Positions 2,620 to 25,777 of a DNA stretch of 25,970 nucleotides are shown here, one piece after another. Within the stretch, counting starts at the first letter, position 1, and every line of letters begins with the position of its first letter. Origin of the DNA: a virus. The stretch spans positions 1 through 25,970 of IMG/VR virus record IMGVR_UViG_3300042307_001570, one strand, 5' to 3'. Below the pieces are notes generated by a model. The model did no database searches. It saw only the letters and a program-made list of their open reading frames with translations, and had not been told where the DNA came from. The position numbers and the translations under genes were made by a program.

Positions 2620-3627
2620 ATGGCCGTTATCGACTCCACCCTGATCGCCAACACGATCCAGCCCCAGTATTCCAAGAAGCTGCTCGGCCACGCCGTCCAG
2701 CTCACCAAGCTCATCGACACCGCGCAGCTCGAGGAGTTGCCCGCCAACGCAGGCAGCACCAGCGTGCGCTTTTTCCGCCCTCCGGTTGCCAATTTGGCCG
2801 CTGAAGGCGCGCCCGCCGCGCTCGCCGAGGGCATTGCACCGTCCGCCTTCCGCTCCATCGCTTACACGCCCATCGACGTGACGCTCGCCCAGCGCGGCGC
2901 CGTGGCGAAGGTGACGGACATCGCCAACAACGTCGGCTTGGTCAAGTACCTCGACACCGCGATCGAGCTGATGGGCGAGGAGTTCGCGTTGGATTTCGAC
3001 ACCCTGCTGCGCAACATCCTGATCCACCCCAGCACCGGCCTGAGCAAACGCTACGGCCAAGGCCTGGCGAGCTTCGCTGCGACCGCCTCGGCCACCGTGG
3101 CCAACTCGGTCATCACCCCGCGCGACCTGCTCAACGCGATGACGCAGCTCAAGATCGCCCGTGCCCCGACCTTCGGCGGCAAGTACGTGGCCGTGCTTCC
3201 CCCGCAGGTGATTTCCGACTTGCTGAGCAATTCGGAGTTCCGCGAGGTCGTGCGCCAGAACAACGCCAACAAGATCTTCAACGGTGAGGTGGGCGAATAC
3301 TACGGTTGCAAAATCGTGGAGGCCACCAACCCGTTCCAGGAGGATGAGACCGAGGGCACCTTTGCCACGACCTTCTCGGCCGCTGGCAGCAACACCACCG
3401 GCCTGATTTACACCAGCATCATCACCGGCAAGGGTGCCTATGGCTGCGTGAACATGAAGAAGATGGGCGCTTCCCCGCAAAAGCCCCAGCTGATCATCAA
3501 CGACAAGCCGGACTCGGGCAACCCGCTCGGCCAATGGATGACGGTGGGCTGGAAGGCCTTCTACGCGGGCATGATCCTCAACAGCGCGTGGGGCATCTCG
3601 CTGCGCACCAAGTCGCAATTCGCCTGA
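2620..3627 (+). CDS. Major capsid protein, N4-gp56 family (335 aa)
   Basis: This is the main shell protein of the head. Its length and pattern fit the N4-gp56 family of HK97-fold capsid proteins: an N-terminal segment 'TLIANTIQPQYSKKLLGHAV', then 'GSTSVRFFRPPVANLAAEG', a central helix-rich part with 'LDFDTLLRNILI', a segment 'ITPRDLLNAMTQLKIARAP' before 'GGKYVAVLPPQV', and a C-terminal 'GQWMTVGWKAFYAGMILN' segment. The ATG follows a CACCACCACC leader with no Shine-Dalgarno, as for most genes here. It is followed by a strong hairpin terminator, which would set capsid output apart from the fibre genes downstream. Confidence is high because several conserved stretches occur in the right order. 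Confidence 0.9.
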   Translation: MAVIDSTLIANTIQPQYSKKLLGHAVQLTKLIDTAQLEELPANAGSTSVRFFRPPVANLAAEGAPAALAEGIAPSAFRSIAYTPIDVTLAQRGAVAKVTDIANNVGLVKYLDTAIELMGEEFALDFDTLLRNILIHPSTGLSKRYGQGLASFAATASATVANSVITPRDLLNAMTQLKIARAPTFGGKYVAVLPPQVISDLLSNSEFREVVRQNNANKIFNGEVGEYYGCKIVEATNPFQEDETEGTFATTFSAAGSNTTGLIYTSIITGKGAYGCVNMKKMGASPQKPQLIINDKPDSGNPLGQWMTVGWKAFYAGMILNSAWGISLRTKSQFA

Positions 3628-3718: not shown

Positions 3719-6100
3719 ATGTCAACGATCGTCCCCACAGTCCGCCCCTACGCCAAGCCCGCCGTGGTGAGCCTCACCGGCACTCACGTGTTCGTGATCG
3801 ACCACCCGACGCTAGGCATGATGTCGATGAGTTACGCGGACCTGCGCACGCAGCTGGACGCCACCTATGTCGCCGCCCAGGCAGCCTGCGCCGCGAGCCA
3901 AAGCGCCGCCGGAGCGAGCCAAACAGCGGCCGCCGCATCGGCTGCTACCGCCACCACGCAGGCCAGCGCGGCCGGGGTGAGCGCAACGGCGGCAGCGGCC
4001 AGCCAGGTCGCCGCCGCAGCCTCGGCCAGCGCTGCGGGCGTGAGCCAGACGGCGGCCGGGGTGAGTGCGAGCGCGGCAGGTGCCAGCCAGACGGCAGCCG
4101 GGGTGAGCGCCACCGCAGCCAATGCCAGCGCCACGGCGGCCGGACTGAGCGAGACCGCCAGCGCAGCCTCGGCAACGACGGCCAGCACGCAGGCGGGGGT
4201 TTCCATCACGCAGGCGAGCAATGCGGCCGCATCAGCCGCCACGGCAGTCGCAAGCCAGGTGGCCGCCGGAGTGAGCGAAACGGCAGCGGCCGGATCGGCC
4301 AACGCAGCAGGCGTGAGCGAGATCGCGGCAGCGGCCTCGGCGGCAGCGGCCTTGGCGAGCCAGACGGCCAGCGCCGGATCGGCCTCGACGGCGTCGGCGC
4401 AGGCGACGGCGTCGGCCAACAGCGCCAGCAACGCCGCCTCCAGCGCCTCGATCGCGCTCAATGCGCTGGCCCAGACGTTCAAAGGCGGGGTGTCTGGTGC
4501 GAGCGTACCGGCCACGAGCACCGCCACCGGAGACACCTACCGGATCACCACAGCAGGCACCAGCCAGAGCAAGACGTGGGCGATTGGAGACGCTGCGATT
4601 TACGATGGCTCCTCAGGCAGTTGGACGCAGCTCACCGGCTGGTTCGCCTACTGCGACTTACAGGCGGGTATCGCTTCGCAGGGGTTCAAAGGCTACCTGA
4701 ACAGCGACGGCGCAACGCCCGACCGTGCTGCGGGCATCCAAGGCCCGTTTGACGCGGTGAACAACCCGCGAGGCTGGGTGGCGGGCGCGGCTACGCTGGA
4801 GTGGGTTGGTATACTTGCCATACCAACGACCGCATTTCCATCGGGACAAGGAAATCGTGTTTTTCATGTGGGACCTAGTGCAACACCTGGCGTATGGCCT
4901 GCATTTACAGACTCGTGTTTGACTGCGCAATTTTTTGGAAATAACCACGGAAAAACGGGAAACGAGTTTAGTCTAAATCAGAACGGATTGAGCACTAATG
5001 GTTTCGCTAATCGGGAATGGCAATTGTCTGACTTCCGCACGCGATACTCGGGACGAACCATAAAACTGAGAATTAAGATTACGGCTGGCACATCGTCTCC
5101 GTATATTGAAGTCGATGACGTAGATATAACTAGCCTAGGAACATACGCAACATTTGGGACAAGCATCCCCGACTGGCTCGCTTCTACTGGATTCACGCCG
5201 ACCTACCACCTGACGGGCTACAACTGGCACTCCGGCCCCGCGCCCGTGGGCTGCTTTATTCTCGGTTCTCTGACCGACGCCGACCGTGCGTTTCACCGCA
5301 GCACGGGGCATTATCCGGCTTGGGTGGTCGCGGGGGGGAGTATGCTACAAAATACCGGGACGTGCTACACTACATTTGGTGCGGCCATTACGGGAGCTTC
5401 GTCTAGTGGATTTAGTCTTACCACAGTAGGAACTGGATATCATGAAGTAAGAACGGCTCCTGTTTTCTCTGCTGTAAAAGGACAAACAGTTAATATCTCA
5501 TTCACCCAGACTGGCGCTCAGCCATTAACATGCTTTTTGAATGATGGGGTGCAGTATTTCACATCTGCGTCAGGTAGTAATTCATTCACCGCAACGGTTC
5601 AAAACAGCACTTCATCGAATCAACTTGTTTTAGCATTTTCAGGCACGAGCGGGGCTTCTTTTGCTATATCTAATTTGGTCGTAAGGCCAAACGGTGCCCT
5701 CTCGCTCCCCGTCATCCAGCCCATCGCCGTCCTCGACGACGCGACCACCATCGGCGGCAATCAGGCGCGGCTCGTCGGCGTGACTCCGGTGACGGATAAA
5801 CGCGATTGGCGCATCAGCGCTGACACGTTCACGAACGGCAACAAGCAGGTGCTCGAAGGCACGCTGCTCGACTCCACCGCCGACGTTATCGACTCCATCG
5901 AGCAGTTCACCACGGGCACGCCAACGACCACCGTGGGCAGCGTCTCGGCGGGCTCACAATACAAAGCCTCGTCCGCCCTCTCCGCTGGTATCAACCCCGC
6001 CACCCTCGTCACGCGCAAGCTGGCAACGGGTGACATCTGGGTGAACAGCACCTCCACCGCTCAAGTCCGCACCACCATCACTGGCCACCGCGCCGTCTAA
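3719..6100 (+). CDS. Modular tail fibre / receptor-binding protein (793 aa)
   Basis: This is a trimeric-fibre-type protein that probably recognises the host surface. Residues 1-50 form a compact head that should attach to the particle ('VFVIDHPTLGMMSMSYADLR'). Residues about 51-251 are a long Ala/Ser/Thr repeat stalk built from units like 'GVSQTAAGVSASAAG', as in phage tail-fibre repeats. Residues about 252-308 are a small linker module ('GDTYRITTAGTSQSKTWAIG'). Residues about 309-540 are beta-rich and lectin-like (LamG/concanavalin-type by look), and about 541-661 form another beta-rich module ('GQTVNISFTQTG'). The last 130 residues are a separate C-terminal module. The two tip modules are encoded by A+T-rich DNA unlike the rest of the gene, pointing to exchange of host-range modules. 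The gene ends 2 bases before the next ATG. Confidence 0.8.
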   Translation: MSTIVPTVRPYAKPAVVSLTGTHVFVIDHPTLGMMSMSYADLRTQLDATYVAAQAACAASQSAAGASQTAAAASAATATTQASAAGVSATAAAASQVAAAASASAAGVSQTAAGVSASAAGASQTAAGVSATAANASATAAGLSETASAASATTASTQAGVSITQASNAAASAATAVASQVAAGVSETAAAGSANAAGVSEIAAAASAAAALASQTASAGSASTASAQATASANSASNAASSASIALNALAQTFKGGVSGASVPATSTATGDTYRITTAGTSQSKTWAIGDAAIYDGSSGSWTQLTGWFAYCDLQAGIASQGFKGYLNSDGATPDRAAGIQGPFDAVNNPRGWVAGAATLEWVGILAIPTTAFPSGQGNRVFHVGPSATPGVWPAFTDSCLTAQFFGNNHGKTGNEFSLNQNGLSTNGFANREWQLSDFRTRYSGRTIKLRIKITAGTSSPYIEVDDVDITSLGTYATFGTSIPDWLASTGFTPTYHLTGYNWHSGPAPVGCFILGSLTDADRAFHRSTGHYPAWVVAGGSMLQNTGTCYTTFGAAITGASSSGFSLTTVGTGYHEVRTAPVFSAVKGQTVNISFTQTGAQPLTCFLNDGVQYFTSASGSNSFTATVQNSTSSNQLVLAFSGTSGASFAISNLVVRPNGALSLPVIQPIAVLDDATTIGGNQARLVGVTPVTDKRDWRISADTFTNGNKQVLEGTLLDSTADVIDSIEQFTTGTPTTTVGSVSAGSQYKASSALSAGINPATLVTRKLATGDIWVNSTSTAQVRTTITGHRAV
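3870..4470 (+). repeat. Ala/Ser-rich repeat stalk within the tail fibre gene
   Basis: Degenerate in-frame units of about 7 to 14 residues with the pattern G/A-V/A-S-x-T-A-A repeat about twenty times. At DNA level the units share words such as GCCAGACGGC and GGGGTGAG. This is coding sequence for a fibre shaft, not a CRISPR or non-coding tandem array. Length changes here by recombination would alter shaft length. Confidence 0.8.
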
Positions 6101-15724: not shown

Positions 15725-18700
15725 ATGCCCGCACAACGCCCCCCCGAGTGGTCCGAACTGGAAGCGGACCCCAAGTGGTCAACTCTCGACCGTGAACAGA
15801 AGCGTGTGGTGCTCGCCAATTGGGGCTCCACCGTGGCGGATTACGTCGCCGAGAACGGCGGGTTTAACCCCGACACTGAAACCAGCTTCAAGACGACGCT
15901 GGCCGGCATTGCCGAAAAGCACGACCTCGTGCCGGGCGTGGGCGAAAAGACTGGCCAGTGGTTCACCGACGCGTGGCACAACTTGAGCCGGGGCGCGCTC
16001 AATGACTTTGTGGGCGGGGTGATCGAGGCCCCGCTGCGTGTTGCCGAGAACGTGTTGCCCAATGATTGGGTGGACGCGGAATCGGCAGCCAACGCGGTCG
16101 CAGGATTTCGCAAGGCGGTTGATGAGGCGCACCCGGTACGCCCCGAGTTTGCCGAGAGCATCCCCGGCCAAGTGGTGCGTGGTTTGGGTCAAGCCATCCC
16201 GAACGTGGCGCTGGGCGCCCTGCGCCTGCCCGGCCTCGCCGCCGGTGCGGTGGCGCAGTCCTTTGACCAAGGCTACCAGGACGCCGTGCAGAGCGGAACC
16301 ACCCCGAGCGAGGCGTTTAAATCAGGTGTGGCCAACTTGCCCGGAGCCATTCCCGAATACTACGCCGACAAGGTGGCGCTTGGTGGACTCATGAGCGCGG
16401 CCAAGGTGGCCCCGCTCAAGCGCGAAATCGTCAAAGCAATCGCCACGGGAGCAGCCAGCGAGGCCACCCAGCAGACGTGGTCTAACGCCGTGGCCTCGTA
16501 CATAGTCGGCTACGATAAAGAACGCGAACTTACCCAGGACGTGGGGAATTCGGCACTGGTTGGCGGACTCACCGAGGGAATCGTGCGTGCAGGCACCAGC
16601 GTTGCAGAAAATGCCGCCGCCCGCTCGGGGCACAAGGAGTTTGCCCAGCAGCTCGACACCGCAAAAAACATCCCCGAAAGCACCAAGACGCTCCTGCTCC
16701 AGCAGGACCAGCTCCGGCGCGGCCTGCGCCCGGCTCAAATGTTTCCCGCCGGAACCACCCCTTTGCCCATGATCGATGGCATGGAGCAGGTGAAAAATGA
16801 GCGTGGCGTTTTTCATTTTAACCCGAAGCAAATCACCGCGGCCGAAATCCTCTCGGCCAGCCGCGACGGCAAAGAAAACGAGATTTTAGGGCTTGGGCCC
16901 GTGAGCAAACCCGCAGCGCAGGCCCGCGCCGCCGCGACCGGCGAAAAGCTCGTGGCCGTGGCTGAACGCGCCGCCGATGGCACTGAAATCAAAACCACCA
17001 TCGGCACCACCGGCACCGCGCCCGCGCAGGTCGCCGCGCTGGAGGCCAGCAAATCGCCCGGCTCCACCGTCAAGGTTGAGGAGATCGGCAAGACGATTGT
17101 GGAGCGCCAGCGCGCCGCGCAGGCTGCCGTGGAGCAAAAGGCCCGCGAGGAAAAGCTCGCCGAGGATACCCGCCGCGCCGAGGCGCAGGCCCGCCGCGAT
17201 GGTGACAAGCTACGCTTTGAAGAAACCCTGCTCGCCGCCGATGCGTTGGAGCAGGACCGCGCCGCCGCATGGCCTGCGGTCAACGGAGCGCTCAAGAGCT
17301 TGTCAAACTTCGTGGACGACACGTCCTATGCACTCACGCAGCAACAGCGCGAGGCCGCGCTGAAGCGCATCGCCCGCCTGCAACCCCGCGCCGAGCAACT
17401 CAAGGTGGGGCATGACGCCGCCGCCGATGCGCGGTTTAATGCGGACAAAGCCGCCGCTGCCGCCGCCGAAAAGGCCAAGCAGGAAAAGGTGCGTGCCGAC
17501 CAGGCGCGCATCGACGCGATCGACGCCACCGGCCGCGACCCGTCCACGAACCGGATCGTGCAGATCGAGAATTTAACCGACGACGACCTGGCCGACGTCG
17601 GCAACGACCTGCAAAAAAACGGCCTGACGCCGCAGAGCTACGAGGCCGAGCTGATGCGCCGCGAGCGCCAAGCCGCCGAGGAGGGCAACCGGTCGAATTT
17701 CACGCTGCGCGATTTGTTTGTTGGGAAAAAATCGGCCCTCAACGCCGCCGGATTAACCGCGCCCCTGCGTTTGCCTACGCCCAAGACCGAGACCGAACGC
17801 GGTGGTTTGGGTGGCGAGCTCAAGACGCTGCGCGAAAGCTCGGGTGCGTTTGCGTTTTTCCAGAACAACGCGCCCGCGCTCGACCGCATGGCGCAGACCC
17901 TGCGCGGCCTCGGGTTTAAGGTGCAGACCGAGAACGACGTGGTGGAGCTGGTCGGCCGTGCGTTTGGCGGCGAAGACGTGCGCCCGGAGACCGAGGGTGA
18001 GGTGGAGTTTGCCGCTGCCGCCCGACGGGTAGAGCCGATCGCCACGGGCATCACCGAAAGCGCAGCCACCCTTGCCAGCAAAGAAATCCCCGCCGCCACC
18101 AACCCAACGGTCAAGCAATCCTTGACCGTTGCCGCACTCCCCAACGTCGAGGTCGAGCGCCTGCGCGCCGCCCACGCGAAGGCCCTCGGCCCTCGCATGG
18201 CCGACCTTGACCTGCGCGTCGGCTTGTTGGCCGAACTACTGGAGCAGGAAGGCTACCCGAAAGCCGCCGCCAACCTGCGCGCCAACAAACTTGGTGAAGC
18301 GGAGGCCGTGGTGGCCAACCGCCGCGCCCCGCAGTTTCGCGCCGAAATCGTGCGCCTGCGCCAGGAGCAGGCGTTCATCCTCGTATCGGCAAAAGCTGCC
18401 GCCGATGGCAAGATGACCGGCCTGATTTCCCACGAACTCGCCCATCGCTATTGGGACACGCTGCCCGAGGACGCCAAAGCGATCGAGCGCGCCGCCGCCG
18501 ACCGTGCGCTGGCAAACAAGACCGGCCCGCTTTTTAATGCCCAGGGGGAAAAGCAGACCAACATCGCCATCACCGCCGAGGAGCTGCGCGCGGCCGGACT
18601 GAGCGCCACGCTCGAGGCCGACCCTGATCTGGTTTACAAGGAATACTTCGCCGAGCTTACCCGCATCGAAAACGAACGCTACCTCGGCAACCGCGTCGAG

Positions 18701-21700
18701 GCCAGCAGCGCCCCGGCCCATACCCGCCGCCTGCTCGCCCGCCTGCGCCAGTGGTTGCAAGAGGTGTTTGATGCGGTCCGCCGCACCACCGGCCGCGCCG
18801 ACCTATCGCGCGAAGGTTTCCGTGAATGGCTCGCCGGAGCCAGCCAGGAGCAGACCAATCGGACCGCGCTCGCCTACGCCACCCGCCGCGCGCCCGCGTT
18901 TGCGACCACGCAGCAGATCAAGACCGAGACGCCCGAGTTCAAGCGCTGGTTTGGCTCATCAAAAGTAGTAGACGATAGCGGCAAACCACGCGTGGTTTAT
19001 CATGGCACCGGTAATGCAGGTTTTTCGGTCTTCAATAATTTATCCTGGTTTGCTGATTCACAGGATATTGCTTCCGGCTATTCCAAACAAATCCCAGCTG
19101 GAAAAACTGAAGCCGAAAACCAAGCCGTTTACCCTGTCTATATCGCAATAAAAAACCCCAAGCGGGTTGATTTTTTCGCCCTACGGGATGATGTCGAAAA
19201 GTGGTTATCACCTAATAGTAAATACGACGGGATAATCATAGATCGTTCAATGGTTCCAAACAGCAGGGGGAATTTCTATGTAGTAAAATCCCCCACGCAG
19301 ATCAAATCCGCCATCGGTAACAACGGGAACTACGATCCCGCCGAGCCGCGGATCGACCAGGCCACCCAAGCCACCTTTGATCTTGGCGGCATGAGTCCCG
19401 GCCTGCCCCTGCCTAACGCGATCCGCAATCTCACTCCCCGCTGGCAAAATAAAATCCTGCGGTTCGATAGTAACCTGGACAAAGCGCTCTACTACGCCGG
19501 AGGCGAGGGCAAGACCGAGACCCGCACCGCAACCATTGACCACCTCGCCCGTGAAACAGGCCTGAGCACGGGGCAAATCGCCAGCCTTGCCCGCACCTTG
19601 CGCGAGAAAATTTCCCCTCTCGCCGCATCCACTGCCACCGATGGAACGCTGCGCATTCCGGCGTTAATGGAAAACGAGGCAGCCAAACTTGCATCACCGG
19701 CCAAACCTGCGCAGCCTTCCTCAAGTGAAAACCAACAGCAAGACACCGGCACCACCATTGCCCGCTACGTTGACGGCAACGGCACGTCGGCCCAAAAACG
19801 CGCCGAAGCCATCCAGCAAATCAGCGCCGTCCACGCCATCGCCGACAACCGCAAGCTCGACGAAAGCGATTATCTACAAGCAGCCGGAGGAAAGAATAAT
19901 AATGAAAATGACGCGAATTCGGGGGCGGACTCCGACGAGGCCCTACGGAATCGGGGACGAGTAGACCAAGCCGCCAAGCAGGAACGTGCGCGGCGCGCGT
20001 TGACCAATCCCGAGAAAATGCTTGAGCGGGCGTTGCTCGACGACAATCGCATCAGCAGCATCATTCCCGAGTTGGTCGCAAATCCGCGCCGCTCGTGGGA
20101 TATTCGCGGGGCGGTCATCAAAACCCCCAGCGACCTGCTCGCACTCACGCAAATCCTGCGCACGCCCTACGCTGAAACGGGAAAAGTGATTCTCGTTAAC
20201 AGCCGCAACGAGGTGGTGCACGCGGAAATCATTAGTATCGGCACCACCACCAGCACGTATTTTGCGCCCAGCCACTTGGCTCAAGTGCTCGCACGGGCAC
20301 CGAAGACGACGGAGCCCTACGGGATCATTGTTTCGCATAACCATCCCAGTGGCGACCCGACGCCCAGCGCGCCGGATATGCGCATGACGCGGGTGTTTAT
20401 AGACGCGGCCCAATCAGCCGGGCATTACCTGCTCGATCACGTCGTCACCAATGGCAAGCGCTACTACAGTTTTAAGGAAACCGGCGTGATTGCCGAACCC
20501 ACGGGGGCAACTTCATTCACCGACCTTGCACCAGCCGCACGCGGAGCCGAGGCGGATCCTGATTTATCGGCCAACCAAACCCGCGCACCGTGGGAAGTGG
20601 TGGCCCGCGAAGACCTCAAAGCGATCAATAGTCCTTATGATGCCAGCGTGTTTTTAGCCACGGCGCGGCAGGTCGCACCGGACGCCATGCACGTCATCTA
20701 TGTAAACCGGCGCAATCAGATGGTGTCGTTTGAGCGTATTCCGAAGGCCACAGAACTGAGCGCGCAGGCCATGCGCCAGCGCCTTTTTGAATCCATGGGC
20801 AGGGAAGGGGCCACCGGCCTGTTTGTGGATATGCCGGACAGCTTATCGGGCGTAGACTCGATGCGAACCATGCGGATGCTCAGAGAATTTGCCACGAAAA
20901 CGGATTTTGTCCTGCTCGATGTTACGGGTAAATTCCAGGGATCGAACACCCACGACAGTGCGAAGATGATGGGGTTTATCTCCGAACCAGGGCAAAAGAG
21001 CTTTGGGGGAGTAGGCGAAGACGCTAAGCGCCCCATGGACAGAAGGGCTACGGCTGATCAAACTGCCATTATGCCCTCTCATCCTTGGCCTAAGGACTTT
21101 CCTGACGTGCTATGGCACGCGGAACAAACCGCCATTAGCGCGCATCCCGATTACAAAGCGGCCAAAGCAGGCGACAGCGCGGCAGCAGTGCGCTTGGTGG
21201 ATGCGTTTATCAACCGTGATAAAGCCGCCGATCTCGCGCAAAAATACCCCGAGGCCATTATTCTTCCGGTTCACGCGGAGGAAGCGGGCGGAAGAAATGC
21301 CATCCCTATTACCTATGCGGCCCGCATGGCTATGCTGTCGGGCCTGCCACTCGAAACTCAAATCGTGCAAAGCAATCGGCGCTATGCCACAGGCAAGGAC
21401 GGTCTTTATCGCTGGGCCAATCGAGCAACATTTGAGGGACCAGTCGAAACCGGTCGCGATTATATTATCATGGACGACATGCGCAGCATGGGCGGCACAC
21501 TCGCTGCACTGCGCAACCACATCGAAGACGGAGGCGGGCGCGTAGTCCTCGCTTCTACACTCGGAGCTGACAGCCGCCGCCTTGCCCAAGACCGAGTTAC
21601 GCTCGCACCTAGACCCGAAGTCATTGCGGAGCTTGACCGCCGCTTTGGCCTTAACCAGATTTCCAACACTCTCAATGAACTCGGTATTGCCCAAGACGCC

Positions 21701-24700
21701 CGCCACCTCACCGGTCCAGAAGCCACATGGCTCTCAACCTGGCGCGGCTCGCTTGACGAATTCCGAGATCGAGTCCTTGCGCTCCGACGCGGCAATGAAG
21801 GCCAAGGAGGCGTTTCGACTGTTTCACCTTCAGGACCAAGCAGCGGACCAGAAGGCGGCGTAAGTTACGCCACCAGCCAACGCGATCAAGATTCTGCGGT
21901 CCAAGAACCCACCGCACCCACCAACGCCGCCGCAGCCCTCAAGGCCGCGCTGCCCGCAGGCGTCACCACGGCCGCCGCGCTCGAGCGCGAGCAGGAAGCC
22001 GAACAGGCCACGCTATCCGAAGCCGCGCGCGAAGCCCGCCACCCCGCCGCCGTCGGCGCGACCGAACCCGGCGAAGCTTGGGCGAGCGTGGCCAAGATGG
22101 CCGAGAAGCAGCTCACCGAGGAGCGCGCCAGCATTGCCAAGCACCTCGACGAATACGCCCTCGACCTGGCCGACATTGAAAAGGCTCACCTGCAAGGCCG
22201 CACCGCTGCGCTCAAGGCCGAGATCGAGCGCCGAGCTGATCCCGTGGAGCGCGCCACCAAGGTCACCGCGCTGCCCAAGATGGACCGCAAAGAGGCGCTC
22301 AAAACCGAGCTCGACCGGGGCCGCCGCCTGCGCGACGACGGACTCAAGACCGGCAACGATACCGCGGCCAACGAGGGCACCCGCATCGTCAAGGCCGCCA
22401 CGGCCCGACTGGATGAGGAATACCCCGGCTGGGATGCCAAGAAACCAGTTGTTAAGGATTCCTTAATAACTGCCACCAAGCCCGCACCGGCCGCCCTCGC
22501 CACGCAGGACGATGGCCGCAACCTGCCGCCGACCGCCCCGCCGGAGCCGCCCGAAAACGGTGCACCTCGCCCCGACGACGCCGCGCCCGACCGGGGTCGT
22601 GCCCGCGCCGCCTTCGGCCACAGCGCCTACACGCCCAACTTCCTCGAACGCACCACCGAGCGCCTGCGCTCCATGGCCGTCGGATTCCGTGGCGCAATCC
22701 CGGAGCTGCCCGCATTCCCGGCACTGGCCGCGAAGACCGACCGCTTCATCCGCGACCAAGGGCCCGCGTTTTACAACAACCTGAAGGCGTTCTACCGGAC
22801 CCTGAGCAGCGCCAACGACTACGTGCAGCGCACCGCCGAGGAGCAGGTCGACGCCATCACCGGCCCGCTCATGAAGACCGGCGTGGCCTTCGATGCCACT
22901 GCTTACGCCCAACTGAAGAAACGCCAGGAGCAGGCGCGCCGCCTCAAAGCCGAGGGCAAACTGATGCCCGCCGGAGCCGGGGCCGAACTCGACGCCCTGC
23001 AAAGCCAGCTCGAGGCGCACCCTTACGTGCTGTTTAACAAATTGGTTTATTTCATGGACCTGGACTGGCGCGGGCGGAATTTGAAGGACAGCGAGGGCAA
23101 CCCAATCAAACTACCCGACGGTCTCAACCAGACCGAGATCGACAACGAGCTGGCCCGCCTCGGCGGCCTGATCGCTGCGAGCCCGCATGCCCAGCTGATC
23201 GAGACCGCGTTTGACCGCCACATGGCGCTGGTGAAACAGACCGCCGAAGACCTCAAAACCCGCGACCTGCTGGCCGCCCAGCACCTGGACAACCCGTACT
23301 ACTTCCCCCACCTGACCCTCGAAATCACACGGGGCGACAAGGTGATCGAGCGCGAGCTGCGCCCCGAGCGCGTGCGCGTGGGCACCGAGGCGGACTTCAG
23401 AGGCTACCTGCAAGAGCCCACCGGCAGCCTCAAGCCGATCGAGAGCGACTACGTGCGCGCGGTTTATTACCACCTCGTGCAGGTGGGCGCGCACAACCTC
23501 AAGGCCGACGCGATCCGCGACCACGCCCGCAGTTACGATGTGATGGAGCAGGTAAAGGACCGCGCCAAAGTGCTATCCAAGCAGCGCGGGCGCTCGGTTT
23601 CATGGGAGGAAGTGTTTCACAGCGAATACGCTCCGGCCGGTTACGTGCTGTACGGCACCGACAGCCGCGACGCGTTCCCCTCGGTCATGGTGGACCGCGA
23701 CAAGCTGGCCCGCCGCCTCGGTGAAGCCCTCACCAGCGCCGACCTGCACGAGCAGCTGAAGGAACTTGGCGTCAAGGGCATCAAGCTGCTGCCCGAAGAC
23801 CTCAAGGAGACCCTGATCCAAGGCCAGCGCGAGACGTGGATCGTGCCCGCCCGCGTGGCCGAGGCGCTACGCGGCATCGCCGATCGCCAGAAAAAGACCA
23901 GCGAGCCCATCGAGAGCGCCATCAAAAAGGTGAACGGCGCGTGGAAGGGCTGGAAGTTGTTCATGCCGCAGAACCACATCCGCTACGAATACGGCAACAT
24001 TGTGGCCGATTTGGAAAAGCTATTCAGCGCCAGCCCGCGCACGTTCAAATACCTCGGCCAATCGGCCAAGGAGATGCGCGCGTTCTTCCAGGGCGAGGCC
24101 CCGAGCGCCGACCTGCGCGCCGCGCTCAAGGACGGCGTGATCAACGCGATCACCGCCGCCGAAATGAACCAGCTGCAGCGCCTGCGCGCGTTTGAGAAGT
24201 TCCAGACGGTGGGCGAACGCATCACCACACAGCTCAAGAAGCGGAGCAGCTCGGCGCTTTACCAGCCGATCACCAACATGGTCGGCCTGGGCGACTTGAG
24301 CAGCGTGGAGCTTTCGGCCTTGCGCGAGGGCGTGACGCGTTACGCCAACTACCTCGCCAACTTGGAGGCGATCCGCAACAACGCACGCCCCGACTACGCC
24401 GGAGCCTACTGGCGCGACATCGAGGCGATCGGCGACAGCCGCCCCGGAGCCAACGACAAAGCCCAGCGCCAGGCGGCGCAAATCAGCAAGGCGACGTTCG
24501 GCGATTACGGCGACCTGAGCACCAACGGCCAATACTTGCGCGACAAACTGATCCCGTTTTACAGCTGGATCGAGGTCAACTTCAAGTACCACGCCAACCT
24601 GCTGCGCAACTTGCGCGACCAGGTGCGCGGCGACATCGACGGCGGCACAGGCAACGCAGCCGCAACCGCAGCCCGCGTGGCCGGAGCGCGCGCCGGTGGC

Positions 24701-25777
24701 TTCGTGCTGCGCCTCGCGCTGCCTTACGCCGCCGTGATGCTCTGGAACGCCATGGGGCCGCACGGAGTCGACGACGACGACCTGAGCGAGGAGGACCGGC
24801 GCCGGTTCCACATTCGCCTGGGCAAAGACGAGAACGGCAAGCCGCAGGTGGTTTATACGAACACGGCGCTGGCCGACGTCACCAAGTGGTTCTCGGGCCC
24901 GAAGTTTGCCCAGGCCGCCACCGCATGGGTGACCGGCAAGACCGACTTCGTGACCGCGATCGACAGCTGGGCGAAGGACATCCCGGGGGATTTTGCCAAC
25001 AACACGATCGGCAGCGCCGGACCGGTGATCAAGTTACCCGCCACCGCGATCCTCAAAAAGAACTTCTTCCCCGACGTGCTGGATGCGCGGACGATCCCCG
25101 ACTACGACATGCGCCGGGCGATCATCAGCCAGATGACGGACGACTTCACCGCGGACCGCATCGAGGCCACGGTGAACAAAGACTACCTCGCACCCAAAGA
25201 CCTCGGCACCTGGGCGAAGCAGCTGGTGCTCCAGGTGCGCCAACGCGACCCGGAGAGCTGGGCGTTTTACGGCATCAAGGACAAGGCCGCAGAGTGGGTG
25301 GAGAAGCGCACAGGCCAAAGCCGGGACAGCAGCTACAACGCGCCGGACCAGCAGGTGCTGCGCAACTTCCGCCGGGCGATTTACCAGGGAGACCCGGAGA
25401 CGGCGGCGAAGTTTTACCTGCGCCTGCTGGACCTCGGCTACACGAGCGACCGCTTCACGGCCTCGATCCGCGCCCAGGAGCCGCTGGCCGGAGTGCCCAA
25501 AGACCTGCGCCGCGACTTTGTGGCCAGCCTGAGCGAAGGCGAGCGGGCGCAACTGGAGCGCGCGTACCAGTTCTACGTGCGCATGAGCACGAGCAAAGGC
25601 ACGGAGCGGGCGCTATTCCCGCGCAAAGAGTGGGGCGAACGCGGCCAGCAGTACTACCAAGCAAACCCCCGGGTGGGCGTGCTCACGCAGACGATGCAAC
25701 GCACGGAAGCGATGGCCGAGGAGGAGCTGGTGGCCCGCGCAAAGTGGGAGATGCAACGCAGTTTGATGCGGAATTAA
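15725..25777 (+). CDS. Giant polyvalent multi-enzyme virion protein: zincin, ADP-ribosyltransferase, RadC/JAB, phosphoribosyltransferase, LPD38 (3350 aa)
   Basis: I start at ATG 15725, one base after the preceding stop; the frame is open to 15488 but that part shadows the previous gene. Domains by residue: 1-320, Gly/Ala hydrophobic, membrane-active look ('GQVVRGLGQAIPNVALGALR'); about 455-600, coiled coil; about 800-980, zincin with HELAH at 903-907 and possible third ligand in EYFAE (973-977); about 1075-1205, ADP-ribosyltransferase with YHGTG (His1093), Tyr1119 and QIKSA (Gln1192); about 1422-1592, RadC-type JAB domain with HNHPSGD (His1538, His1540) and Asp1551; about 1623-1745, degenerate JAB-like copy; about 1782-2020, phosphoribosyltransferase-like with MDDMRSMGGT (Asp1917-1918); about 2046-2240, coiled coil; about 2300-3350, LPD38-like region ('AWKGWKLFMPQNHIRYEYGN', 'LIPFYSWIEVNF') with one hydrophobic span near 2990-3010. 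Polyvalent proteins are known phage effectors delivered with DNA. Individual substrates are unknown. Confidence 0.9.
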   Translation: MPAQRPPEWSELEADPKWSTLDREQKRVVLANWGSTVADYVAENGGFNPDTETSFKTTLAGIAEKHDLVPGVGEKTGQWFTDAWHNLSRGALNDFVGGVIEAPLRVAENVLPNDWVDAESAANAVAGFRKAVDEAHPVRPEFAESIPGQVVRGLGQAIPNVALGALRLPGLAAGAVAQSFDQGYQDAVQSGTTPSEAFKSGVANLPGAIPEYYADKVALGGLMSAAKVAPLKREIVKAIATGAASEATQQTWSNAVASYIVGYDKERELTQDVGNSALVGGLTEGIVRAGTSVAENAAARSGHKEFAQQLDTAKNIPESTKTLLLQQDQLRRGLRPAQMFPAGTTPLPMIDGMEQVKNERGVFHFNPKQITAAEILSASRDGKENEILGLGPVSKPAAQARAAATGEKLVAVAERAADGTEIKTTIGTTGTAPAQVAALEASKSPGSTVKVEEIGKTIVERQRAAQAAVEQKAREEKLAEDTRRAEAQARRDGDKLRFEETLLAADALEQDRAAAWPAVNGALKSLSNFVDDTSYALTQQQREAALKRIARLQPRAEQLKVGHDAAADARFNADKAAAAAAEKAKQEKVRADQARIDAIDATGRDPSTNRIVQIENLTDDDLADVGNDLQKNGLTPQSYEAELMRRERQAAEEGNRSNFTLRDLFVGKKSALNAAGLTAPLRLPTPKTETERGGLGGELKTLRESSGAFAFFQNNAPALDRMAQTLRGLGFKVQTENDVVELVGRAFGGEDVRPETEGEVEFAAAARRVEPIATGITESAATLASKEIPAATNPTVKQSLTVAALPNVEVERLRAAHAKALGPRMADLDLRVGLLAELLEQEGYPKAAANLRANKLGEAEAVVANRRAPQFRAEIVRLRQEQAFILVSAKAAADGKMTGLISHELAHRYWDTLPEDAKAIERAAADRALANKTGPLFNAQGEKQTNIAITAEELRAAGLSATLEADPDLVYKEYFAELTRIENERYLGNRVEASSAPAHTRRLLARLRQWLQEVFDAVRRTTGRADLSREGFREWLAGASQEQTNRTALAYATRRAPAFATTQQIKTETPEFKRWFGSSKVVDDSGKPRVVYHGTGNAGFSVFNNLSWFADSQDIASGYSKQIPAGKTEAENQAVYPVYIAIKNPKRVDFFALRDDVEKWLSPNSKYDGIIIDRSMVPNSRGNFYVVKSPTQIKSAIGNNGNYDPAEPRIDQATQATFDLGGMSPGLPLPNAIRNLTPRWQNKILRFDSNLDKALYYAGGEGKTETRTATIDHLARETGLSTGQIASLARTLREKISPLAASTATDGTLRIPALMENEAAKLASPAKPAQPSSSENQQQDTGTTIARYVDGNGTSAQKRAEAIQQISAVHAIADNRKLDESDYLQAAGGKNNNENDANSGADSDEALRNRGRVDQAAKQERARRALTNPEKMLERALLDDNRISSIIPELVANPRRSWDIRGAVIKTPSDLLALTQILRTPYAETGKVILVNSRNEVVHAEIISIGTTTSTYFAPSHLAQVLARAPKTTEPYGIIVSHNHPSGDPTPSAPDMRMTRVFIDAAQSAGHYLLDHVVTNGKRYYSFKETGVIAEPTGATSFTDLAPAARGAEADPDLSANQTRAPWEVVAREDLKAINSPYDASVFLATARQVAPDAMHVIYVNRRNQMVSFERIPKATELSAQAMRQRLFESMGREGATGLFVDMPDSLSGVDSMRTMRMLREFATKTDFVLLDVTGKFQGSNTHDSAKMMGFISEPGQKSFGGVGEDAKRPMDRRATADQTAIMPSHPWPKDFPDVLWHAEQTAISAHPDYKAAKAGDSAAAVRLVDAFINRDKAADLAQKYPEAIILPVHAEEAGGRNAIPITYAARMAMLSGLPLETQIVQSNRRYATGKDGLYRWANRATFEGPVETGRDYIIMDDMRSMGGTLAALRNHIEDGGGRVVLASTLGADSRRLAQDRVTLAPRPEVIAELDRRFGLNQISNTLNELGIAQDARHLTGPEATWLSTWRGSLDEFRDRVLALRRGNEGQGGVSTVSPSGPSSGPEGGVSYATSQRDQDSAVQEPTAPTNAAAALKAALPAGVTTAAALEREQEAEQATLSEAAREARHPAAVGATEPGEAWASVAKMAEKQLTEERASIAKHLDEYALDLADIEKAHLQGRTAALKAEIERRADPVERATKVTALPKMDRKEALKTELDRGRRLRDDGLKTGNDTAANEGTRIVKAATARLDEEYPGWDAKKPVVKDSLITATKPAPAALATQDDGRNLPPTAPPEPPENGAPRPDDAAPDRGRARAAFGHSAYTPNFLERTTERLRSMAVGFRGAIPELPAFPALAAKTDRFIRDQGPAFYNNLKAFYRTLSSANDYVQRTAEEQVDAITGPLMKTGVAFDATAYAQLKKRQEQARRLKAEGKLMPAGAGAELDALQSQLEAHPYVLFNKLVYFMDLDWRGRNLKDSEGNPIKLPDGLNQTEIDNELARLGGLIAASPHAQLIETAFDRHMALVKQTAEDLKTRDLLAAQHLDNPYYFPHLTLEITRGDKVIERELRPERVRVGTEADFRGYLQEPTGSLKPIESDYVRAVYYHLVQVGAHNLKADAIRDHARSYDVMEQVKDRAKVLSKQRGRSVSWEEVFHSEYAPAGYVLYGTDSRDAFPSVMVDRDKLARRLGEALTSADLHEQLKELGVKGIKLLPEDLKETLIQGQRETWIVPARVAEALRGIADRQKKTSEPIESAIKKVNGAWKGWKLFMPQNHIRYEYGNIVADLEKLFSASPRTFKYLGQSAKEMRAFFQGEAPSADLRAALKDGVINAITAAEMNQLQRLRAFEKFQTVGERITTQLKKRSSSALYQPITNMVGLGDLSSVELSALREGVTRYANYLANLEAIRNNARPDYAGAYWRDIEAIGDSRPGANDKAQRQAAQISKATFGDYGDLSTNGQYLRDKLIPFYSWIEVNFKYHANLLRNLRDQVRGDIDGGTGNAAATAARVAGARAGGFVLRLALPYAAVMLWNAMGPHGVDDDDLSEEDRRRFHIRLGKDENGKPQVVYTNTALADVTKWFSGPKFAQAATAWVTGKTDFVTAIDSWAKDIPGDFANNTIGSAGPVIKLPATAILKKNFFPDVLDARTIPDYDMRRAIISQMTDDFTADRIEATVNKDYLAPKDLGTWAKQLVLQVRQRDPESWAFYGIKDKAAEWVEKRTGQSRDSSYNAPDQQVLRNFRRAIYQGDPETAAKFYLRLLDLGYTSDRFTASIRAQEPLAGVPKDLRRDFVASLSEGERAQLERAYQFYVRMSTSKGTERALFPRKEWGERGQQYYQANPRVGVLTQTMQRTEAMAEEELVARAKWEMQRSLMRN
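18104..18133 (+). repeat. In-frame palindromic element, copy 1
   Basis: A perfect 11-bp inverted repeat (18105-18115 with 18121-18131) around a 5-base loop lies in the linker between the N-terminal coiled-coil part and the zincin of the giant gene. It encodes P-T-V-K-Q-S-L-T-V-A. It aligns codon for codon with the element at 22445-22474. Confidence 0.75.
22445..22474 (+). repeat. In-frame palindromic element, copy 2
   Basis: A near-perfect 25-base palindrome (22447-22471) in the linker before the LPD38-like region encodes P-V-V-K-D-S-L-I-T-A. Ten base pairs align with those of copy 1; four differ by paired changes and one becomes G-T (G-U in RNA). The local sequence is A+T-rich in an otherwise G+C-rich stretch. 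Confidence 0.75.

What the first reader, a model, noticed from the sequence alone, without database searches (positions are those of the whole stretch)
15725..25777. A 3350-residue phage polyvalent protein combining at least five effector-type domains
One uninterrupted frame links a zincin, an ADP-ribosyltransferase, an intact RadC-type JAB domain, a degenerate JAB-like copy, a phosphoribosyltransferase-like domain and an LPD38-like C-terminal region behind a membrane-active-looking N-terminus. Polyvalent proteins are an established class (Iyer, Burroughs, Aravind and others), but this order and the presence of all these enzymes in one chain, in a phage with an N4-gp56 capsid, may be undescribed. 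The likely role is to enter the cell with the DNA and alter host proteins, ubiquitin-like tags, nucleotides or defence systems.
Basis: partly seen in the sequence, partly recalled or inferred. Interest (0 to 1): 0.8.

Follow-up and report, generated by a model that had tools for sequence, protein, structure and literature searches.

The report
Giant phage protein with paired RadC domains
A phage, probably of Verrucomicrobia, makes one 3,350-residue protein that carries a protease and several foreign enzyme modules between two conserved ends; one module, an intact RadC enzyme domain followed by its own inactivated copy, recurs in every RadC-bearing giant viral protein examined and seems not to have been described.

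Summary
The frame is real: 3,350 aa, 26% of a circular 38.7-kb temperate phage genome, found letter for letter in an independent contig. Zincin (HELAH...E), ART-PolyVal, RadC, a degenerate second RadC and a phosphoribosyltransferase are confirmed. LPD38 and a membrane-active N-terminus are not. Relatives (IMG/VR contigs, Opitutaceae MAGs, a prophage-like element on a 450-kb Opitutales contig) share the N-terminal half, the zincin and a 1,200-aa helical C-terminus, but the centre is swapped: LPD3, zeta toxin, ART, PRTase or nearly nothing. In the window the inserted block has GC3 0.62 against 0.82 elsewhere.

The new part is the JAB pair. All 22 other giant viral frames that carry RadC, and two in bacterial genomes, have the same degenerate copy directly behind it. 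Copy 1 keeps all JAMM residues (23/23); copy 2 has lost both metal histidines (23/23). Profile-profile E = 4e-13; the copy-2 profile also retrieves ordinary cellular RadC; the giant RadCs form one clade (98/95). This resembles MPN+/MPN- pairs (BRCC36-KIAA0157, CSN5-CSN6) in a single chain.

Delivery, processing, activity and targets are all inferred. The protein is a polyvalent protein; the RadC/pseudo-RadC module is a new variant.

The parts
15725..25777 (+). 3,350-aa polyvalent protein gene
   Evidence: identical in G001
15725..18124 (+). conserved N-terminal half of the carrier (aa 1-800), no named domain
   Evidence: shared by all siblings that cover it
18341..18907 (+). zincin metallopeptidase-like domain, HELAH at aa 903-907 and E977
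   Evidence: motif invariant in 7/7
18971..19330 (+). ART-PolyVal ADP-ribosyltransferase domain (aa 1083-1202)
   Evidence: Pfam PF18760 E 1.5e-16, full length
19355..19693 (+). unnamed domain (aa 1211-1323) shared with L030 and L026
   Evidence: 57-61% identity
20123..20485 (+). RadC-type JAB domain with intact JAMM residues (E1484, H1538, H1540, S1548, D1551)
   Evidence: Pfam PF04002 E 5e-23; residues 23/23
20588..20992 (+). degenerate second RadC copy (aa 1622-1756), metal histidines lost
21107..21778 (+). type I phosphoribosyltransferase domain (aa 1795-2018), KfrC-related
22136..25774 (+). conserved helical C-terminal region of the carrier (aa 2138-3350)
   Evidence: 45-61% identity in siblings; fold unresolved
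2620..3627 (+). N4-gp56 family major capsid protein
   Evidence: TIGR04387 198 bits

Best explanation
This is a polyvalent protein of a temperate N4-gp56-capsid phage, probably of Opitutales (Verrucomicrobiota). A conserved carrier (N-terminal half, zincin, 1,200-aa helical C-terminus) holds an effector slot between the zincin and the C-terminus. In this phage the slot took up four modules: ART, an unnamed domain, a RadC/pseudo-RadC pair and a KfrC-like PRTase. Most likely the protein is made late, packed in the virion and ejected with the DNA, and the zincin cuts it so that the effectors separate (inferred). The RadC pair probably works as one unit, in which the active metal-dependent copy is held or shaped by its inactive neighbour, as MPN- partners do for MPN+ enzymes, acting on nucleic acid, nucleotides or a protein of the host (inferred). 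Shown: domains, conserved ends, variable centre, foreign composition, recurrence and decay of the pair. Not shown: packaging, cleavage, any activity, any target.
For: Domain matches. Carrier ends and zincin present in the siblings that cover them, with LPD3 (G003, G005, L029, L026), zeta toxin (L032), ART and PRTase (L030) or PRTase (L031) as variable parts, and nearly direct zincin-to-C-terminus joining in G005. GC3 0.62 in aa 1063-2030 against 0.82 in the rest. Gene next to head and tail genes and the integrase. Pair: 22/22 other RadC-bearing giant frames plus L143 and L144 carry copy 2 within about 50 residues of copy 1; homology E 4e-13; copy-2 profile finds ordinary RadC proteins, and 4 of 21 copies match Pfam RadC; JAMM residues kept 23/23 in copy 1, metal histidines absent 23/23 in copy 2; AF2 pLDDT 82, pTM 0.76; four deposited viral models align over the whole pair, TM 0.60-0.67; giant RadCs lie on one side of a branch, 98/95.
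Against: No data on expression, packaging or cleavage. The zincin matches no curated profile. The full order is seen in one phage (two identical contigs). The tandem search used this RadC as bait, so giant-type RadCs were favoured among the 80 loci, and a few of the 22 are near duplicates (L068/L069, L073/L074). Placement of the two RadC halves rests on one AF2 model with 21 sequences. The degenerate copy could be a binding or spacer domain rather than an activator.
Confidence: 0.6

Rival explanations
1. The second RadC copy is a non-catalytic binding domain or a decaying duplicate with no effect on the first copy; the pair is a historical accident carried along with the module.
For: Copy 2 is far less conserved than copy 1 (33% mean column identity) and has lost the metal site.
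Against: It is kept in all 25 giant frames seen with conserved residues of its own (WE at the start, H, D, S, G) and a well-predicted fold, which a decaying duplicate would not show.
Confidence: 0.3
2. The RadC pair is a deconjugase that removes ubiquitin-like tags laid by bacterial defence systems (CBASS Cap2/Cap3, Bil/Bub).
For: JAB fold with a full JAMM motif; weak fold matches to JAMM1 with its ubiquitin-like partner, to BubCD and to BRISC.
Against: RadC is by far the best fold match, and RadC-type JABs are argued to lack the groove for the ubiquitin tail (PMC5512222).
Confidence: 0.15
3. The protein is not injected but acts inside the virion or during assembly (scaffold, maturation), with the enzyme domains used late in infection.
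For: Gene lies next to capsid, adaptor and tail genes; the carrier ends are conserved while the enzymes vary.
Against: ART, PRTase and zeta-type enzymes have no evident use inside a particle; related virion proteins (T4 Alt, N4 RNA polymerase) are known to be injected (PMC5512222).
Confidence: 0.2

Closest known systems
Phage-type polyvalent proteins (Iyer et al. 2017, PMC5512222)
   Same: Very large multidomain phage protein with zincin, ART and PRTase; unlike activities in one chain; in the neighbourhood of virion genes.
   Different: Carries RadC, which that survey in one section lists only for conjugative elements, plus a pseudo-RadC copy the survey does not mention; the carrier C-terminus matches no LPD model.
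RadC-type JAB domain (PF04002, TIGR00608; structure 2qlc)
   Same: Full JAMM motif and fold.
   Different: Lacks the N-terminal part of RadC (match begins at model position 89 of 212); fused in a giant chain; followed by a degenerate copy; own clade.
MPN+/MPN- pairs: BRCC36-KIAA0157, CSN5-CSN6, RPN11-RPN8 (PMC4579573)
   Same: Active JAMM domain beside a homologous domain that lost its zinc ligands.
   Different: Here in one chain, of RadC type and viral; contact, activation and substrate unknown.
KfrC of conjugative plasmids (PMC8124265)
   Same: Related PRTase (E 3e-22) with an acidic PRPP motif; KfrC growth inhibition on overproduction depends on its DDT motif.
   Different: Here one domain of a giant phage protein.
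T4 Alt and N4-type virion ARTs
   Same: Predicted injected ADP-ribosyltransferase.
   Different: Different ART clade from Alt; no RNA polymerase module in this chain.

Membership tests
Phage polyvalent protein | Two or more biochemically unlike domains in one chain | tested here: met
   zincin, ART, RadC, PRTase
Phage polyvalent protein | Encoded by a phage or other invasive element | tested here: met
   circular 38.7-kb phage with N4-gp56 capsid, terminase small subunit, integrase
Phage polyvalent protein | Delivered into the host with the DNA | not testable with these tools
   needs virion proteomics or an injection assay
RadC-type JAB domain (copy 1) | Profile match and JAMM residues E, HxH, S, D | tested here: met
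   81.7 bits; residues in 23/23
RadC-type JAB domain (copy 2) | Homology to RadC | tested here: met
   hhalign probability 97.9, E 4e-13; profile retrieves cellular RadC
RadC-type JAB domain (copy 2) | Metal-binding residues | tested here: not met
   HxH absent in 23/23
MPN+/MPN- type pair | Intact JAMM domain with a homologous partner lacking zinc ligands | tested here: met
MPN+/MPN- type pair | The two domains touch and the partner supports activity | not testable with these tools
   AF2 pTM 0.76 is only suggestive
ART-PolyVal (PF18760) | Full-length profile match above cut-off | tested here: met
   61.9 bits against 31.2, positions 1-139 of 140
Zincin metallopeptidase | HExxH plus downstream Glu ligand, conserved | tested here: met
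   invariant in 7/7
Zincin metallopeptidase | Match to a known zincin profile or structure sequence | tested here: not met
   no Pfam match; no PDB match at E<=10
Type I phosphoribosyltransferase | PRPP loop with DD motif and profile match | tested here: met
   Pribosyltran on sibling L030 at E 2e-4, below the curated cut-off
LPD38 (PF18857) | Profile match in the C-terminal region | tested here: not met
   none at E<=10 in the window and 6 relatives, none; the controls did not ring either, so very remote homology is not excluded

The most novel reading that the evidence does not exclude
Giant phage polyvalent proteins carry a conserved in-cis pair of an active RadC and a pseudo-RadC, a prokaryotic counterpart of MPN+/MPN- pairs; the pseudo-copy is needed for activity or substrate choice, and the module moves as a unit between otherwise unrelated giant injected proteins.
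Probability: 0.4. Interest if true: 0.75.

Novelty: new variant of a known kind. Interest (0 to 1): 0.58.

Why it matters
RadC is widespread in bacteria and its function is disputed. A viral lineage that always keeps an inactive copy beside the active one gives a handle on what RadC binds and cuts. The sibling phages show that the effector part of a polyvalent protein is exchanged while the carrier stays, so the parts needed for packaging and ejection can be mapped by comparison.

Tried and rejected
LPD38: no match in window or relatives. Membrane-active N-terminus: no strongly hydrophobic segment there. Assembly error: excluded by the identical independent contig. Fold of the C-terminus: AF2 model too poor to search (pLDDT 51). 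A scan with the RadC pair's own peptides found only the identical contig; the broader RadC profile found the rest. tblastn for the pair or for copy 2 alone: no phage or plasmid record covers both copies, so cultured phages seem poor in it, although the structure search did find deposited viral proteins with it. PDB match for the zincin: none. Literature for a RadC/pseudo-RadC tandem: none found in the held library, which lacks most subscription papers.

Full report
Observation. Window 15725-25777 is one open frame of 3,350 residues. The window is itself a whole IMG/VR record. A second IMG/VR contig, G001 (38,859 nt), carries the same frame without a difference, and its ends overlap by 127 nt, so the genome closes at 38,732 bp. 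The frame is therefore no assembly artefact and takes up 26% of the genome. The phage has an N4-gp56 capsid protein (TIGR04387, 198 bits), an SU10-type adaptor, a terminase small subunit, an integrase directly downstream of the giant gene, a replication initiator and a DnaC-like loader. The integrase points to a temperate phage.

Domains. Pfam finds ART-PolyVal at aa 1083-1202 and RadC at 1467-1587. The zincin motif HELAH 903-907 and a later Glu (E977) are invariant in seven sequences, although no curated or PDB profile matches. The region 1795-2018 is a type I phosphoribosyltransferase: it matches PHROG_22413, its three-member profile matches adenine phosphoribosyltransferases at the PRPP loop, a sibling matches Pfam Pribosyltran weakly, and plasmid KfrC/TraN proteins are relatives. 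In KfrC of plasmid RA3 the growth defect on overproduction depends on the corresponding acidic motif (PMC8124265). LPD38 could not be found, and hydropathy gives no support to a membrane-active N-terminus.

A carrier with a slot. Relatives were found in IMG/VR, in two Opitutaceae MAGs and on a 450-kb contig of a genome of the same order. They share the N-terminal half, the zincin and aa 2138-3350, but not the centre: G005 and L029 have LPD3, L032 a zeta toxin, L030 several ARTs plus PRTase, L031 only PRTase, and G003 LPD3 and ART. In G005 zincin and C-terminus are almost directly joined. In the window the block aa 1063-2030 has GC3 0.62 against 0.82 in the rest (chi-square p 7e-35), and the ART alone 0.51, so it probably arrived from elsewhere. 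A low-GC3 insert is not seen in every sibling. On the long Opitutales contig an integrase, a replication initiator and a DnaB-like helicase lie just upstream of the giant gene.

The RadC pair. Within the window protein the two copies already match by BLASTP (E 1e-5 for that single comparison). Of 80 RadC-bearing viral loci, 23 lie in giant frames: G001's own and 22 others, 1,544-5,465 aa, a few of them near duplicates. All 22 carry the same degenerate copy right after RadC. Profile against profile gives probability 97.9 and E 4e-13 over 117 columns, while a PRTase control gives nothing. As an independent test, the copy-2 profile was run on 388 genomes of the phylum and matched 176. The two best hits lie in giant frames that also have RadC just before (L143, L144); the other 28 hits examined are ordinary RadC proteins, the best at about E 1e-13. 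Four of 21 copies also match Pfam RadC. AlphaFold2 with the 21-sequence alignment gives pLDDT 82 and pTM 0.76, with the same order of helices and strands in both halves. Foldseek finds RadC 2qlc first, then much weaker JAMM1, BubCD and BRISC. Four deposited viral models align over the whole pair at TM 0.60-0.67; they are named RadC-like, helicase, or not at all. Copy 1 keeps E, H, H, S and D in 23 of 23, and copy 2 keeps neither histidine in any. In a tree of 106 RadC domains the giant-protein RadCs are one side of a branch with support 98/95. A single origin and later spread of the pair is the simplest reading.

Working model (inferred). The conserved ends and the position next to virion genes suggest packaging and ejection; the zincin would then cut the effectors free, as Iyer et al. 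proposed for polyvalent proteins (PMC5512222). The ART would modify host proteins and the PRTase would act in PRPP-dependent nucleotide chemistry. The RadC pair would act as a unit. In eukaryotes JAMM enzymes are paired with homologues that lack zinc ligands, and such a partner is essential for BRCC36 activity (PMC4579573). The same logic in one chain is the favoured reading, but no result here shows contact or activation.

Comparison with the literature. Iyer et al. [quoted passage not shown] Their text does not describe a second copy. The held library gave no description of a RadC/pseudo-RadC tandem. The protein as a whole belongs to a known kind; the pair is a new variant within it.

Limits. 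The order of all modules is known from one phage. The tandem sample was drawn with this RadC as bait. Host assignment rests on two MAG contigs of 4-5 kb and one long contig in the same order. Nothing about expression, packaging, cleavage or activity was tested.

Noticed in passing
window 19355-19693 (aa 1211-1323): Unnamed domain of about 110 aa (LPNAIRNLTPRWQ...ALYYAGG) shared at 57-61% with siblings L030 and L026, at different places relative to the other domains; no Pfam match.
   Followed up: partly
window about 17790-18070 (aa about 690-780): Part of the conserved middle region (GLGGEL..L...LD..A..LR..GF...DV) seems shared with otherwise unrelated giant proteins L066, L073, L074 and L110; no Pfam match.
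   Followed up: partly
L072, aa 359-514 of its 3,126-aa frame: The Gly/Ala-rich N-terminal region (window aa 132-330) recurs in an unrelated giant RadC protein, so it may be a general part of such proteins.
   Followed up: no
L043 and L044 (G375 contig C4, about 105-120 kb): Chromosomal relative: integrase, replication initiator and DnaB-like helicase just upstream of a 2,324-aa polyvalent gene; none of the ten neighbours scanned matched a structural PHROG, so it may be a satellite or a remnant.
   Followed up: partly
L038, L039, L040 (G350, G268, G324): Short pieces of the C-terminal region with a stop codon inside in three further genomes of the order, probably prophage remnants.
   Followed up: no
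L027: A 24%-identity relative of the C-terminal region in a Fretibacterium MAG, so the carrier C-terminus reaches beyond Verrucomicrobiota.
   Followed up: no
window 3719-6100: Putative tail fibre gene with lowered G+C (0.55 in 5001-6000 against about 0.65 around it) and little similarity to siblings.
   Followed up: no
L063, L069, L072, L073, L077: Other giants combine the RadC pair with the same PRTase family; L077 also has ARTs, and L073 reaches 5,465 aa without an end inside the locus.
   Followed up: partly
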